In this document: in pieces, positions 16,129-23,296 of the stretch | How the letters are laid out: each line of letters begins with the position of its first letter | How positions within the stretch are numbered: position 1 is the stretch's first letter | IMG/VR virus record: IMGVR_UViG_3300030107_004270 | Location: 276 to 64,275 of that record | Length of the DNA: 64,000 nt | Strand: one strand, 5' to 3' | Source of the DNA: a virus | Position numbers and translations under genes: made by a program | The notes under the pieces: generated by a model | Told to the model about the DNA's origin: nothing | The model's database searches: none | What the model saw: only the letters and a program-made list of their open reading frames with translations

Positions 16129-17841
16129 ATGGCACCGATTATCAAACCAGGTATTCAACCAAAAAATATTACAAACTCTCCTCGTGCAAGAGTAGGTGGG
16201 ATTAATTCTCCTGCAAGAAAGTTATCACCATTAGTTGAAAATATATCTGCCAAGAATCCTTTTAGTAATATACAAAGAAGAAATCCAGAACTTAGAAATG
16301 TAAGAGGTGCAAGAACCTTAACTAATATGATGAGTACTTTTGGTACTGCAAAGAATGAAAAGATAATAAGAAAGAATTTACAACTACTTAGAAATAGTTT
16401 AGTTGAATCATTTGAAATGGCTAAGTTGTTACGTACAACTGGTAATGAAACTAGTAAAGAAATAAACAAATCACGTCTTGCTGTAGGAGCAGCACTTGCT
16501 GCTCTTGCTGCAACATTATTAGGTGGAAAGAAGAAAAAGAAAGATGATGATGATAAGAAGGGTGATGATAATAATAAAAAGACTGAAAATCAATTTGCAA
16601 AAAGTATTCGTGAGTTCTTTGAAGGAATTAAAGGTGCATTTGCGAAAGGTTGGGAACAGGCTAAAGATGAAGGAAAGGAGTGGGGAGAGAATATAAAAGT
16701 AGTATTTGATGATATTGGAAATATTTTTATTGGATTGAGAGATTCAGTTGAAGGAGTACTTGCAACTTCTTGGGAAGGAACTAAGTCATTTATTGGTGAC
16801 CTTAATGAAGGTTTAGGAAATTTATTTAAGGATATAACGGAATGGATTGGCAACATTGAAATTAATTGGGGTGGTATATTGGGAAGTATTGGAACTTTTG
16901 GATTATGGCTTATCAAATTGGAGTGGATGAAAGGAATGGCTCTTGCCCAAACAAATGATGACTCTAAACCAGTTGGGAAATCGGGCGGTAAAATTATAGG
17001 ACCATCACATGATCAAGGTGGAGTTGATATTAATGCTGAAGGTGGTGAGGTTTTGATGAGTAATGCTGCTGGTAATTTGTGGGGAAGAGATAATCTTCTA
17101 CAGATGAATGCAGAAGCTGTTACTGGAAAGAAAAATAAAAAGAAAAAACCACTTTTAAATTTAACTGAAGAAGATTATAAATGGTTGGCATATGCAATTA
17201 GTGGAGAGGCAGAGAGGGGTACTGATGATGAGTTTGGAGTTGCTGCATCCATTTTAAATAGAGTTGCTTCCCCACATTTTAAAGGAAGTGTTGAAAGTGT
17301 TGTAAATAATCCTGGCCAGTATGAGGCAATTACTAAAGGTACTGCTTTTCATGATAAAGACTTGGCAGCATTTCTTCAATCAGAGGAAGGACAGAAGGGA
17401 ATAGTAGCAGCACTAGAAAAATTACAAGGAAGAACAGACTTTAAAGGTCAAAGTCAAATTGGTAATAGGGTTGTTGATGAGGACCCTATGTTCTCCGATA
17501 TGGGTAACTTCTTTCATTATTTTTGGCAACAACCTGGTGTAAAAAAACCAGAAGGATGGACGAAATCTAACTGGGAACAGTTTTTAAATCAATCTAAAGT
17601 TGATGGAGTTAAGAATAAGAATGTATCTTCAATTGAATCTCAGATGAATAAAGGTGGAATTGTAAATGTTGCACTTGGTAACCAAGGTGTTCAGGTTATT
17701 CCTTCATCAACTGGTAAAAAAACTCAAGTAGTTAATTCTACTCCAGCAAGTAGTAATGGACCATCTTTACCATTTCTTTCTGCAAGTAATCCAAATTCTT
17801 CTAATCTTCCTTACAAAGTAATTTGTAACATCTATGGGTAA
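16129..17841 (+). CDS. Hub/tape-measure-like protein with SleB cell-wall hydrolase domain
   Basis: 570 residues. The N-terminal 110 are basic and helical, then a hydrophobic segment (VGAALAALAATLLGG), a KKKKKDDDDKKGDDNNKK linker, and an amphipathic Trp-rich helix region (about 150-265). GPSHDQGGVDINAEGGEVLM (near 290) is a motif of phage tail proteins. Residues about 345-480 form a Hydrolase_2/SleB-like domain: YAISGEAERGTDDEFGVAAS, LNRVASPHF, VVNNPGQYEAI, with Glu in GEAE as the expected catalytic residue. It probably cuts peptidoglycan during DNA entry. The place in the hub operon (between gp51-like and gp27-like) fits a gp29-like role. Confidence 0.75.
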   Translation: MAPIIKPGIQPKNITNSPRARVGGINSPARKLSPLVENISAKNPFSNIQRRNPELRNVRGARTLTNMMSTFGTAKNEKIIRKNLQLLRNSLVESFEMAKLLRTTGNETSKEINKSRLAVGAALAALAATLLGGKKKKKDDDDKKGDDNNKKTENQFAKSIREFFEGIKGAFAKGWEQAKDEGKEWGENIKVVFDDIGNIFIGLRDSVEGVLATSWEGTKSFIGDLNEGLGNLFKDITEWIGNIEINWGGILGSIGTFGLWLIKLEWMKGMALAQTNDDSKPVGKSGGKIIGPSHDQGGVDINAEGGEVLMSNAAGNLWGRDNLLQMNAEAVTGKKNKKKKPLLNLTEEDYKWLAYAISGEAERGTDDEFGVAASILNRVASPHFKGSVESVVNNPGQYEAITKGTAFHDKDLAAFLQSEEGQKGIVAALEKLQGRTDFKGQSQIGNRVVDEDPMFSDMGNFFHYFWQQPGVKKPEGWTKSNWEQFLNQSKVDGVKNKNVSSIESQMNKGGIVNVALGNQGVQVIPSSTGKKTQVVNSTPASSNGPSLPFLSASNPNSSNLPYKVICNIYG

Positions 17842-19290: not shown

Positions 19291-20634
19291 ATGTCAGATT
19301 TAATATCAACAACGAGCTGGGGTGATGATGGAGTTACAATTTATCCTCTTTCTGGTGGGAAAAGTAAAGATATAGACTCCACTCGCCAACTATTATATTT
19401 TGATTACTTTGAAGATATATTGCAACCAGCTGTAACAGGAACACTCCGAATTATTAATTCTTATAGTTTAGTTAATGAACTTCCTATACGTGGTGGAGAG
19501 AAAATTCATGTGACTGTAAAGAGTCCAATGGGTTCTACTTATTATAAAAATGGTTTTGAAGTAACCTTAGTAGTTGGAAGAGTTGAAGGTGTTCTAATGG
19601 ATGATTTTAAAGAGGTATATGATTTACACCTTGTTTCGGAAGAGCATTTTCTGAATGAGCAAACAAGATGTATGAAAAAATATTTTAATACAAATATAGA
19701 TGCTCATGTTAGAGATATAATTACTAATGTTTTATATCAAGGTAGTGATGTTGATGATAAAAAGAAGATTTTAGCTGAAGAAACTTCTAATACATATTCC
19801 TTTATTGGTTCAAGTAAGAAACCATTTCATGCTTTGGAGTGGTTAGGTGTTAAATCTATTTCAAAATTAGGAAGTGGTGGTACTTCTGGAGAAGATAAGA
19901 CAGGAAAGAATAAAGGTACTGCTGGATTTTTATTTTATGAGAACCAAGAAGGATATAATTTTAGAAGTATTGATTCAATGGTTACTGGTTCTCAAGTTGG
20001 TTCTACTAAAGGAGATCCATCTTTTAAATATTTTTATACAGGTAAAGTAATTGAACATGCTAAAATTACAAATAATTTTAAGATTGTAAATTATCAATTT
20101 GCAGAGAGTATTGATTTGCAGAAAGCAATGAGTTTTGGTATGTATGCAAATGAGACATATTTTTATGACACTTATAATAATCAAGTATCTTTATATACTT
20201 ATGATTTGCAAGAGGAAACTAAGAGTGCTACTAGACTTGGAAAGGAGGATAAGATTTTTGTTAAGAGTGATTATGCTAAAAATTCTACTCGAAGTTTGTT
20301 TAGATTCTCTGATCATGGAACTTTAGGTAGTGATGGTACTCTTGGAGATTCGGGTAGAGATGATGGTGATATGGCGAAATCCTTTTCTAGATACAATTTA
20401 TTGTTTACTCAGGCACTAAATATTTCAGTTCCGTGTAACACTAAATTAAAAGTAGGTGATCTAATTTATTGTGAATTTCCACAAATGGAAGGAGGTCAAC
20501 CTAAAGATGTTGATCCTGAAATTAGTGGAAATTATGTTATCAGAAAAGTTAGACATCGTATTTCAGCGAATCAAAGTATGAGTTATGTTATGTTAATGAG
20601 AGATTCTTATGGATTATACGGACCCGACGAATAG
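19291..20634 (+). CDS. 27: Baseplate hub protein gp27-like
   Basis: 447 residues. Opening strands (DDGVTIYPLSGGKSKDIDST, LLYFDYFEDILQPAVTGTLRI), INSYSLVNELPIRGGEKIHVTV and a later domain (TGFLFYENQEGYNFRSID-like, LLFTQALNISVPCNTKLKVGDLIYCEFP, GNYVIRKVRHRIS, YVMLMRDSYG) match the tail-hub fold of T4 gp27 and related VgrG/D-type hubs. gp27 forms the trimeric ring that carries gp5. It is 6 nt after the previous gene and followed by a strong AGGAGG ribosome site for the CP12-like gene. Confidence 0.78.
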   Translation: MSDLISTTSWGDDGVTIYPLSGGKSKDIDSTRQLLYFDYFEDILQPAVTGTLRIINSYSLVNELPIRGGEKIHVTVKSPMGSTYYKNGFEVTLVVGRVEGVLMDDFKEVYDLHLVSEEHFLNEQTRCMKKYFNTNIDAHVRDIITNVLYQGSDVDDKKKILAEETSNTYSFIGSSKKPFHALEWLGVKSISKLGSGGTSGEDKTGKNKGTAGFLFYENQEGYNFRSIDSMVTGSQVGSTKGDPSFKYFYTGKVIEHAKITNNFKIVNYQFAESIDLQKAMSFGMYANETYFYDTYNNQVSLYTYDLQEETKSATRLGKEDKIFVKSDYAKNSTRSLFRFSDHGTLGSDGTLGDSGRDDGDMAKSFSRYNLLFTQALNISVPCNTKLKVGDLIYCEFPQMEGGQPKDVDPEISGNYVIRKVRHRISANQSMSYVMLMRDSYGLYGPDE

Positions 20635-20642
20635 GAGGTTTT

Positions 20643-20912
20643 ATGACTACTAAAGTACCAGAACACGATCTCAATCATGAGGTTTATATTGATCCAAAGG
20701 ATCATAAAGAGCATGTCAATCATGGCATGATTGAATATAGCGAGTCAGATCTAGAGATGCACAATGATGCTTTCCATGATCACACAGAGGAGGAAGTAGA
20801 ACCTAATGATGGTAAGATCAATGATTGGCACACACGCCATGAAGATAAGCACTTAGAAGTGTATTGTGATAACCATCCAGATTCACTAGAATGTAGAGTG
20901 TATGACGACTAA
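20643..20912 (+). CDS. cp12: CP12-like protein with C-terminal GAPDH-binding cysteine motif
   Basis: 89 residues. The end reads HLEVYCDNHPDSLECRVYDD: C75-x8-C84 with ECRVYDD is the diagnostic C-terminal loop of CP12, the small regulator that binds GAPDH and PRK and shuts down the Calvin cycle. The N-terminal CP12 cysteine pair is missing and replaced by a His/Asp/Glu-rich segment (EHDLNHEVYIDPKDHKEHVN, MHNDAFHDHTEEE). So it should be able to contact GAPDH by the C-terminal part but not form the N-terminal disulfide. It has a strong AGGAGG site (20635-20640) and overlaps the gp5 start by 1 nt. Phage cp12 is known; its place here between gp27-like and gp5 is notable. Confidence 0.8.
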   Translation: MTTKVPEHDLNHEVYIDPKDHKEHVNHGMIEYSESDLEMHNDAFHDHTEEEVEPNDGKINDWHTRHEDKHLEVYCDNHPDSLECRVYDD

Positions 20913-23296
20913 TGATTGACGAATCCTTACTTAAATCGAGTTTTGCAGGAAAAGATGGTTTCTCCTGGTGGATAGGCCGTGTTGCTCATCCAGACTATTG
21001 GAAGAATACTAACCTGGCATTGCAAAATCTTGGTGAAATGGCTCAAAGAGTTAAAGTTAGAATCGTAGGGTATCATCCTTGGGATGACACTCTACCTGAA
21101 TCTGAACTTCCTTGGGCTCATGTTGCTATGGATGCAGTAACTGGTGGTGGTCAAGGAACCAGAGGAGATACCTTGGCTCTTGTTGGTGGTGAAACTGCCA
21201 TTGGATTCTTTTTAGATGGCGAAGAGGCACAGCAACCAGTTATTATAGGATTGTTGCATCGGTCTGCGAATGTATCGGATACTATTTCAGAATCTGAAAT
21301 AAGTTCAGCAGGAAGTAGTCAGTTTAAAAATATGACTGGATTCCCTGCTGGTAAAGCACCTGCTACTGCTAGAAGAGCACCAAAATTTCAATCTAGAACA
21401 GGAACTAAAAATAGTCAAGGTGCGGTTACAAACACAGGACAGGTAGAAAAACCAACTGTTTTAGATTATGTAGATCTCGATGGTAATATTGATCAAGATG
21501 CATTTAAAGCAGCTAAACAAAGCTTCAAAGAAAATGGTGCTGGTGTTGGTATGGTAGATGCCCAAGGTTCGGCAGCATTAAAAGCAGCTGAGGAAAAAAA
21601 TACTAAGGACGTTGTAAAACCAGACAAGTGTGGCAAGGGTATAATTAGTGATATTGCTACGAGTCTTGAGAATTTTATTGCATTCACGAATTCTCTTGAA
21701 AAAGATTTTGATGATTATATAAATCCTCTCACCAATGAGATTGTTGATATGACATTGGAGATAAAAAGAACTGCAAAACATATTGCTGGTATTATAAAGA
21801 AGATTATTAATAGTGCTCGTACTGGAATGATCAAGAAGATCATGGGAGCGTTTAAAATTTTTCAAATCCTTAATAAAAAATTTAATCCTCTTGATTTCTT
21901 CTTAGGTCCAGCTGCTAAGAAAGCATTTATAAAAATTATTGATATAGTATGGTGTTTATTTCAGAAAATGTTTGGAGATATATTTGGTTTCCTTAAAAAT
22001 ATGCTGGAGAATTTGATTACAAAAATTATTAATGGTCCTCTTTGTGCAGTTGAGCAATTTGTTGCTGGTATATTAAACAAAGTATTTGGTATTCTTGAAG
22101 GATTCTTGCAACCAATATTAGATGGAATTAGTTGGTTGCTTGGTGGACTGGGAAGTGTTATGGATATTCTCAATCAAGCAAGTAGTTTGGCGAGACAAAT
22201 TCTTAGTTGGCTTGCATGTACTGGAGTTGAGTGTAAACCTGCTAAAAAATGGAAGAGTAGTCAAGTTGCATCTATTTTGGGCCCAGTAGATAAATGGGAA
22301 GATACTATTGAAAGTATGAATTTCATGAAAGGAATTCAAAAAGACCTTAAAGAATGGGAATCGGGGATAGGAACATCTAAGATTATGAAATGGTTTAATG
22401 GTGAAGATACGGAAGAAGCAGAAGGTGTTGAGGTAAATGGAGTTAGTATTTTAGATCTTTTGGGTACTATTAAAAAGTTATCGGGAGGAAAGATAGATCC
22501 AACAAATATTTTAGGATCAATTGAGGGTGCTATTGGTAGTCTTTCTATATTTGGTAATGGTAATTCTGCATATAGTGCATGTGATGAACACATATGGAAT
22601 CCTAAGACTCAATATGATTTAATTAGTATACCTATCGGACATACTCATTGGACTTGTATTCCACCTATAAGTGAAATTAATGGTACTGGATTTGGTGCAG
22701 TTACAAAACCAATAGTTGATGCTGAAGGAAGAATATTCTCAATTGAAGTTGTTTATGGTGGATCAGGGTATGAAACTAATACAACGATTGCAATTATTGA
22801 TAGGACTAATCATGGATCAGGAGCTCGTGGTAAGGTAATAGTGGAAAATGGATCAGTAAAAGAGGTTGTTTTATTACAACAAGGATCTGGTTATTGTGGT
22901 GGTGATAATAGTCAACTCCTTATAGATATACCCAAGGGTTCTGGTGGTATAGGAACTTCAGTTGTTGGTGTAGTTACTAGTGTCTATGTTGATAGACCAG
23001 GAATTGGTTATACATCTGGAGATACTATTGATATTGGTGGTACAATTGTTCCTATAAGAGTAACTCCAGGAAATGGATCTATTGTATATGTTGATCCAAC
23101 TCCTACTGATGGTTTTGGATTCTCTAAACGTCCAAGAGTTACAATAAATAGTACTACTGGATTTGGTGCAGAAATTATTCCTATTATGAAGTATAATGTT
23201 CAGTTTACAGATGATTCTGCTGGTGTTAGACCTCTCATAGGCATCACAAGTGTCATTGATTGTCCTCCAGAAGACCACGTATTTAATAGTAATTGA
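20912..23296 (+). CDS. 5: Baseplate hub/spike protein gp5-like, OB-fold type
   Basis: 794 residues. The N-terminal domain (GKDGFSWWIGRVAHPDYWKN, AQRVKVRIVGYHPWDDTLPE, LPWAHVAMDAVTGGG, ETAIGFFLDGEEAQQPVIIG) is the gp5 OB fold. No T4-type lysozyme triad is visible. Residues about 260-450 are hydrophobic, helix-rich (TAKHIAGIIKKIINSARTGMIKKI, FLQPILDGISWLLGGLGSVM). The last third has repeats of the GSGY type (YGGSGYETNTTIA, LQQGSGYCGG, RPGIGYTSGDTI), probably beta structure. It thus forms the central spike base. The gene overlaps CP12 by 1 nt; the next gene supplies the needle-like tip. Confidence 0.82.
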   Translation: MIDESLLKSSFAGKDGFSWWIGRVAHPDYWKNTNLALQNLGEMAQRVKVRIVGYHPWDDTLPESELPWAHVAMDAVTGGGQGTRGDTLALVGGETAIGFFLDGEEAQQPVIIGLLHRSANVSDTISESEISSAGSSQFKNMTGFPAGKAPATARRAPKFQSRTGTKNSQGAVTNTGQVEKPTVLDYVDLDGNIDQDAFKAAKQSFKENGAGVGMVDAQGSAALKAAEEKNTKDVVKPDKCGKGIISDIATSLENFIAFTNSLEKDFDDYINPLTNEIVDMTLEIKRTAKHIAGIIKKIINSARTGMIKKIMGAFKIFQILNKKFNPLDFFLGPAAKKAFIKIIDIVWCLFQKMFGDIFGFLKNMLENLITKIINGPLCAVEQFVAGILNKVFGILEGFLQPILDGISWLLGGLGSVMDILNQASSLARQILSWLACTGVECKPAKKWKSSQVASILGPVDKWEDTIESMNFMKGIQKDLKEWESGIGTSKIMKWFNGEDTEEAEGVEVNGVSILDLLGTIKKLSGGKIDPTNILGSIEGAIGSLSIFGNGNSAYSACDEHIWNPKTQYDLISIPIGHTHWTCIPPISEINGTGFGAVTKPIVDAEGRIFSIEVVYGGSGYETNTTIAIIDRTNHGSGARGKVIVENGSVKEVVLLQQGSGYCGGDNSQLLIDIPKGSGGIGTSVVGVVTSVYVDRPGIGYTSGDTIDIGGTIVPIRVTPGNGSIVYVDPTPTDGFGFSKRPRVTINSTTGFGAEIIPIMKYNVQFTDDSAGVRPLIGITSVIDCPPEDHVFNSN

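What the first reader, a model, noticed from the sequence alone, without database searches (positions are those of the whole stretch)
20643..20912. CP12-like peptide encoded inside the baseplate hub operon
Residues 70-89 (HLEVYCDNHPDSLECRVYDD) match the CP12 C-terminal signature C-x8-C-RVYDD, yet the gene lies between gp27-like and gp5-like hub genes and is translationally linked to gp5 by a 1-nt overlap. The N-terminal disulfide pair is gone and is replaced by a His/Asp/Glu-rich, perhaps metal-binding, region. A Calvin-cycle inhibitor made from a late structural operon would be timed unusually, or the motif has been reused in the virion.
Basis: partly seen in the sequence, partly recalled or inferred. 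Interest (0 to 1): 0.75.

Follow-up and report, generated by a model that had tools for sequence, protein, structure and literature searches.

The report
Cyanophage CP12 gene in hub operon
A marine cyanobacterial virus carries, between two tail-hub genes, a small gene for CP12, a known protein that viruses use to switch off the host's carbon fixation; both the gene and this location are already known, and the less familiar points are its unusual front half and signs that it is made late in infection.

Summary
An 89-aa ORF at 20643-20912 ends in a genuine CP12 C-terminal domain (Pfam PF02672, E=1.6e-7, above the curated cut-off). It has a strong ribosome site and overlaps gp5 by 1 nt. It is an orthologue of P-SSM2 gene PSSM2_066 (T4-GC 63), which Sullivan et al. 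2010 already list as phage CP12. The location is also not new: annotated CP12 genes lie just after the same tail gene and before gp5 in Syn33, P-SSM7 and Sf-FS3, and that paper mentions "near gp5". The missing N-terminal cysteine pair is normal for marine picocyanobacterial hosts too. In 2025 phage pairs whose hub genes have diverged strongly, CP12 synonymous sites are saturated yet it changes about six-fold less at the amino-acid level than its neighbours. This fits an intracellular effector with a constant host target and argues against a structural part. Less familiar: the window clade carries the P-SSM2-type CP12, with a conserved 60-aa N-terminal arm known only in phages, at a site where cultured phages carry the host-like type. 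A late-promoter-like motif (TAAATA) is strongly enriched upstream of it, with no sigma-70 enrichment. Late expression is therefore plausible but untested.

The parts
20643..20912 (+). CP12 gene, 89 aa, T4-GC 63 / phrog_2603 type (stop codon included)
   Evidence: Pfam CP12 1.6e-7; phrog_2603 6.5e-22; 67% identical to PSSM2_066
20832..20906 (+). CP12 C-terminal domain, residues 64-88, with Cys75 (20865-20867) and Cys84 (20892-20894) and RVYDD tail
   Evidence: Pfam alignment span; C-x8-C aligns with solved CP12 peptides; hhalign to host-like phage CP12 over the last 24 residues, E 1.8e-11
20643..20831 (+). Phage-specific N-terminal arm, residues 1-63, acidic and His-rich, conserved HDLxHEVYxDPKDxKEHxNHGMxEY block
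   Evidence: pN 0.065 against pS 0.594 over residues 1-30; found only in P-SSM2/P-SSM5 and uncultured marine phages in the phage collection
20633..20638 (+). Shine-Dalgarno AGGAGG for cp12, overlapping the stop codon of the upstream tail gene
   Evidence: read from sequence
20416..20422 (+). CTAAATA, late-promoter-like motif inside the 3' end of the tail gene, 227 nt before cp12
   Evidence: enrichment of TAAATA upstream of cp12 across dereplicated relatives
19291..20634 (+). upstream tail protein (T4-GC15 / phrog_350, gp27 position)
   Evidence: phrog_350 6.1e-93
20912..23296 (+). gp5-like baseplate hub protein, start overlaps cp12 stop by 1 nt
   Evidence: phrog_1922 6.7e-101; tblastn to annotated gp5 of cyanophages

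Best explanation
This is the cyanophage CP12 auxiliary metabolic gene of the P-SSM2 (T4-GC 63) type, sitting at a site in the hub operon that cyanophages commonly use for cp12. Inferred mechanism: the largely disordered peptide is made from the hub transcript or from a late promoter in the end of the preceding gene. Its C-terminal Cys75-Cys84 hairpin and RVYDD tail enter the active site of the host Calvin-cycle GAPDH (Gap2), an acidic tail residue meeting an arginine there, and reduce its activity. NADPH and carbon are thereby kept from fixation and left for the pentose phosphate pathway and nucleotide synthesis. Shown here: the domain, the synteny, the strong purifying selection and the motif enrichment. 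Inferred from known CP12s: GAPDH binding and inhibition. Inferred from the motif alone: late timing. The classical features needed to hold PRK (N-terminal Cys pair, AWD_VEE) are absent, as in the host's own CP12, so a GAPDH-centred action is most likely; the conserved N-terminal arm probably makes a second contact whose partner is unknown.
For: Pfam CP12 over cut-off, in all 25 relatives tested. PDB hits are CP12 chains only, including short CP12 peptides from GAPDH complexes. The orthologue PSSM2_066 is T4-GC 63, which Sullivan 2010 lists as CP12 (PMC3037559). Same locus in Syn33, P-SSM7 and Sf-FS3 and in 75 of the 80 IMG/VR loci kept. pN 0.074 at pS 0.676 for cp12, against pN 0.500 for the tail gene and 0.429 for the gp5 N-terminus, in 2025 divergent-hub pairs. 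Host CP12s share the single C-terminal Cys pair. A CP12 C-terminus alone regulates GAPDH in plant GapB, and the penultimate acidic residue contacts a GAPDH arginine in Chlamydomonas (PMC4436894). Late motif: 12 of 14 against a 1.9% background, and 17 of 26 against 7.7%.
Against: No binding or expression data exist for this peptide. Homology to host-like CP12 is confined to the last 24-26 residues, so the N-terminal arm could redirect the function. In P-HM2, the phage with a published transcriptome, cp12 is middle-expressed (PMC5082946), though its gene is elsewhere, beside talC, and has a sigma-70-like promoter overlapping the late motif. The window's own motif lies 227 nt upstream, inside coding sequence, and in this subgroup coincides with an [LI]NI amino-acid motif, so it may be coding-driven.
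Confidence: 0.8

Rival explanations
1. The CP12 tail has been co-opted as a structural or assembly peptide of the baseplate hub (for example a small spacer or chaperone for gp5), with no role in carbon metabolism.
For: It lies between the tail gene and gp5 with a 1-nt overlap to gp5 in most relatives.
Against: Relatives also occur away from the hub: P-SSM2, ACG-2014f, Syn1, RB11-B and IMG/VR loci L051, L071, L085, L089, L090. In other phages the same slot holds a different CP12 type, or cp12 plus cpeT, pcyA and a tRNA. It does not diverge with the hub proteins. The main text on S-SM1 virion proteomics names the neighbours gp5 and T4-GC15 but does not mention CP12 in the passages read (PMC3037559; its Table S8 was not read).
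Confidence: 0.04
2. A CP12-tailed adaptor: the C-terminus still docks on GAPDH, but the conserved N-terminal arm recruits something else (PRK by a non-classical route, another host enzyme, or a metal), so the protein does more than a host CP12.
For: Residues 1-30 are as constrained as a functional domain (pN/pS about 0.11); the block is shared by P-SSM2 and hundreds of uncultured phages and is absent from host CP12s. Compatible with the best explanation.
Against: Short T4-GC 63 members (65-76 aa: ACG-2014f, RB11-B, Syn1) lack most of the arm, so it is not needed for the family's basic role. AlphaFold gives no confident structure (mean pLDDT 43).
Confidence: 0.3
3. A decayed passenger or chance ORF retaining a CP12-like tail.
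For: Only the last quarter of the protein is recognised by the Pfam model.
Against: Strong purifying selection over the whole length, open in the relatives sampled, good ribosome site.
Confidence: 0.01

Closest known systems
T4-GC 63 CP12, Prochlorococcus phage P-SSM2 gene PSSM2_066 (phrog_2603)
   Same: 67% identity over 94% of the query, same N-terminal block and C-terminal motif; listed as CP12 in PMC3037559
   Different: In P-SSM2 it lies among small hypothetical genes some way after a bilin gene (PSSM2_058), not in the hub operon; no late motif was seen in the 70 nt upstream
T4-GC 337 CP12 (phrog_627) of Syn33, P-SSM7, Sf-FS3, P-HM2
   Same: CP12 C-terminus; in Syn33, P-SSM7 and Sf-FS3 the same slot after the tail gene and before gp5
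   Different: Host-like N-terminus; the two types separate with 100/100 support; profile match limited to the last 24 residues
CP12 of Prochlorococcus and marine Synechococcus hosts
   Same: Single C-terminal Cys pair, no AWD_VEE, C-terminal [LRI]-x-YDD-type end
   Different: N-terminal halves unrelated by sequence; the window protein lacks the HDPN/HDPT spacer before the Cys loop
Classical CP12 (N/C type) of plants and most cyanobacteria
   Same: C-terminal domain, Pfam PF02672
   Different: No N-terminal Cys pair and no AWD_VEE core, so PRK bridging by the classical route is unlikely

Membership tests
CP12 (Pfam PF02672) | profile score over the curated cut-off | tested here: met
   32.4 bits against 22.7, E 1.6e-7; 25 of 25 relatives match at E<=0.01
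CP12 (Pfam PF02672) | C-terminal Cys pair with C-x8-C and terminal Y[DE]D | tested here: met
   C75, C84, YDD in the sequence; aligned with solved CP12 chains
Classical CP12-N/C | N-terminal Cys pair | tested here: not met
   only two Cys in the protein; also absent in the picocyanobacterial host CP12s examined
Classical CP12-N/C | AWD_VEE core motif | tested here: not met
   absent in the sequence; also absent in host picocyanobacterial CP12s
CP12 (functional) | binds and inhibits Calvin-cycle GAPDH | not testable with these tools
   needs purified peptide and host Gap2
Cyanophage CP12, T4-GC 63 / phrog_2603 | full-length match to the phrog_2603 profile | tested here: met
   6.5e-22 over residues 6-89; P-SSM2 member 1.9e-31
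Cyanophage CP12, T4-GC 337 / phrog_627 | full-length match to the phrog_627 profile | tested here: not met
   only 0.0078 over residues 42-89; separate in the tree
Structural hub protein | confined to the hub locus and evolving with its neighbours | tested here: not met
   relatives outside the hub; about six-fold lower pN than hub genes

The most novel reading that the evidence does not exclude
In a large uncultured clade of marine cyanophages, cp12 of a phage-only type with an extra conserved N-terminal arm has been placed under late control in the hub operon. Calvin-cycle shutdown is thus renewed or deepened during particle assembly, possibly through a partner beyond GAPDH.
Probability: 0.3. 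Interest if true: 0.5.

Novelty: new member of a known kind. Interest (0 to 1): 0.3.

Why it matters
Phage CP12 is one of the main levers by which cyanophages are thought to stop CO2 fixation in the ocean's commonest phototrophs. If this widespread clade makes it late, current models based on middle-expressed cp12 (P-HM2) would not describe these phages, and when carbon fixation stops during infection could differ. The conserved N-terminal arm is a defined, testable piece of sequence with no known partner.

Tried and rejected
Structural reuse: rejected on evolutionary rate and on relatives outside the hub. Recent horizontal spread of cp12 alone between hub lineages: mostly rejected, since cp12 synonymous sites are as saturated as those of its neighbours; about 30 of 2025 divergent-hub pairs have cp12 pS below 0.45 and could reflect local exchange. 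Sigma-70 promoters upstream of hub cp12: no enrichment of strong matches (score 10.5 or better: 1.2% against 2.7% in 150 nt; weaker matches are about twice background). Other homologues of the N-terminal arm: none in the phage collection beyond this clade and P-SSM2/P-SSM5. NCBIfam: no hit. AlphaFold: mean pLDDT 43, so not used for fold searches. talC in the same record: not found, but the record is 106.7 kb and may be a fragment. Thompson 2011 and Stanley 2013 are not held and could not be read.

Full report
What is there. The ORF at 20643-20912 is real: 89 codons, ATG, AGGAGG at 20633-20638 and a TAATG overlap with gp5. The upstream gene is a phrog_350 tail protein and the downstream gene a phrog_1922 baseplate hub protein. 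The last 26 residues are a CP12 domain by Pfam, 32.4 bits against a curated cut-off of 22.7, E=1.6e-7. All 25 relatives tested give the same hit, and PDB sequence matches are CP12 chains only.

It is a known protein. Its nearest annotated relative is PSSM2_066 of P-SSM2, 67% identical, labelled T4-GC 63. Sullivan et al. 2010 list T4-GCs 63 and 337 together as CP12, carbon metabolic regulator, present in 15 of 16 cyanophages, and state that cp12 and talC occupy variable positions including near gp5 (PMC3037559).

It is a known place. In Syn33 and P-SSM7 an annotated CP12 follows the T4-GC15 tail gene and precedes gp5, with cpeT, pcyA, a hypothetical gene or a tRNA between in different combinations. 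In Sf-FS3, whose gp5 is the closest of the isolates listed, a 'carbon metabolic regulator' is the only gene between them. SynMITS9220M01 has a hypothetical gene there that matches phrog_627. S-SSM4 is similar. Of the 80 IMG/VR loci kept from 554, 75 have cp12 beside the tail gene and/or gp5. Five IMG/VR loci and two single-cell virus loci (L010, L011) are elsewhere, in several cases next to genes of unknown function or an endonuclease.

Two CP12 types. A tree separates the host-like phage type (T4-GC 337, phrog_627), which groups with host CP12s, from the window type (T4-GC 63, phrog_2603) with 100/100 support on the split; the tree rests on few columns. Profile comparison aligns only the last 24 residues. 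The isolates at the hub site carry the host-like type, while the window clade carries the phage-only type there. This looks like replacement in place, but I did not test the direction. The N-terminal arm is conserved and was found only in this clade and P-SSM2/P-SSM5 in the phage collection.

The absent N-terminal cysteines are normal. The Prochlorococcus and Synechococcus host CP12s retrieved have a single C-terminal pair and no AWD motif, in line with PMC3906501.

Selection. In 2025 pairs of loci whose tail proteins are under 40% identical, mean pS is 0.676 for cp12, 0.632 for the tail gene and 0.650 for the gp5 N-terminus, whereas mean pN is 0.074, 0.500 and 0.429. The loci were chosen by CP12 similarity, which biases amino-acid identity upward, but the saturated synonymous sites show the constraint is real. 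This fits an effector with a conserved host target.

Timing. The published cyanophage late promoter is NATAAATA (PMC2984593). The window holds 24 copies of [AC]TAAATA where shuffles give 62, and 21 of the 24 are on the coding strand. Among 40 dereplicated relatives, 12 of 14 with a gap of 18 nt or more before cp12 have TAAATA within 50 nt upstream (background 1.9%), and 17 of 26 abutting ones have it 50-260 nt upstream (background 7.7%); binomial 2e-19 and 2e-13, ignoring remaining relatedness. Syn33, P-SSM7 and S-SSM4 have it 26-31 nt upstream. In the window it is CTAAATA at 20416, 227 nt upstream, where it also encodes a recurrent [LI]NI motif, so its role there is less sure. Strong sigma-70-like sites are not enriched. 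P-HM2 cp12, which is middle-expressed, has TTGACA-17-TAGGAT overlapping ATAAATA, an early-plus-late arrangement of the kind proposed to give middle expression (PMC2984593). Late expression of the window gene is therefore an inference from motifs.

Mechanism. CP12 C-termini put their terminal residues into the GAPDH active site when the disulphide is closed, and a CP12 tail alone regulates plant GapB (PMC4436894). The window protein keeps those features. Without the classical PRK-binding features, a GAPDH-centred action is the most likely. No experiment here tests it. AlphaFold gave no confident fold, in keeping with a disordered protein but not evidence for it.

Verdict. The sequence reading was accurate and the CP12 call correct. 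The locus and the missing cysteines are ordinary for this group. The phage-only N-terminal arm and the late-promoter signal are the parts worth a test.

Noticed in passing
16129-17841: 570-aa hub-operon protein with a Hydrolase_2 cell-wall hydrolase domain (Pfam 1.5e-6, residues 368-435), while the gp5 homologue shows no Pfam lysozyme domain; the lysozyme activity may sit in the upstream gene.
   Followed up: no
window, 24 sites listed: [AC]TAAATA is depleted (24 against 62 expected) and 21:3 biased to the + strand, with many sites 20-54 nt before a gene start, as expected for an avoided late-promoter element.
   Followed up: partly
L098-L103, L105, L106: Phage-type CP12 genes on contigs filed under Rhodopirellula, Nonlabens, Euryarchaeota and Anaerolineales, probably phage contigs misbinned into those genomes.
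   Followed up: no
L085, L090 (4737-4955), L071 (4750-4968): Where cp12 is away from the hub, it often follows a 72-aa ORF; two of these tested (L071, L090) match phrog_6312, unknown function.
   Followed up: partly
L070, L078 (5277-10267): In two loci the ORF after cp12 is at least 1663 aa (runs to the locus end) and is not recognised by the gp5 N-terminal profile.
   Followed up: no
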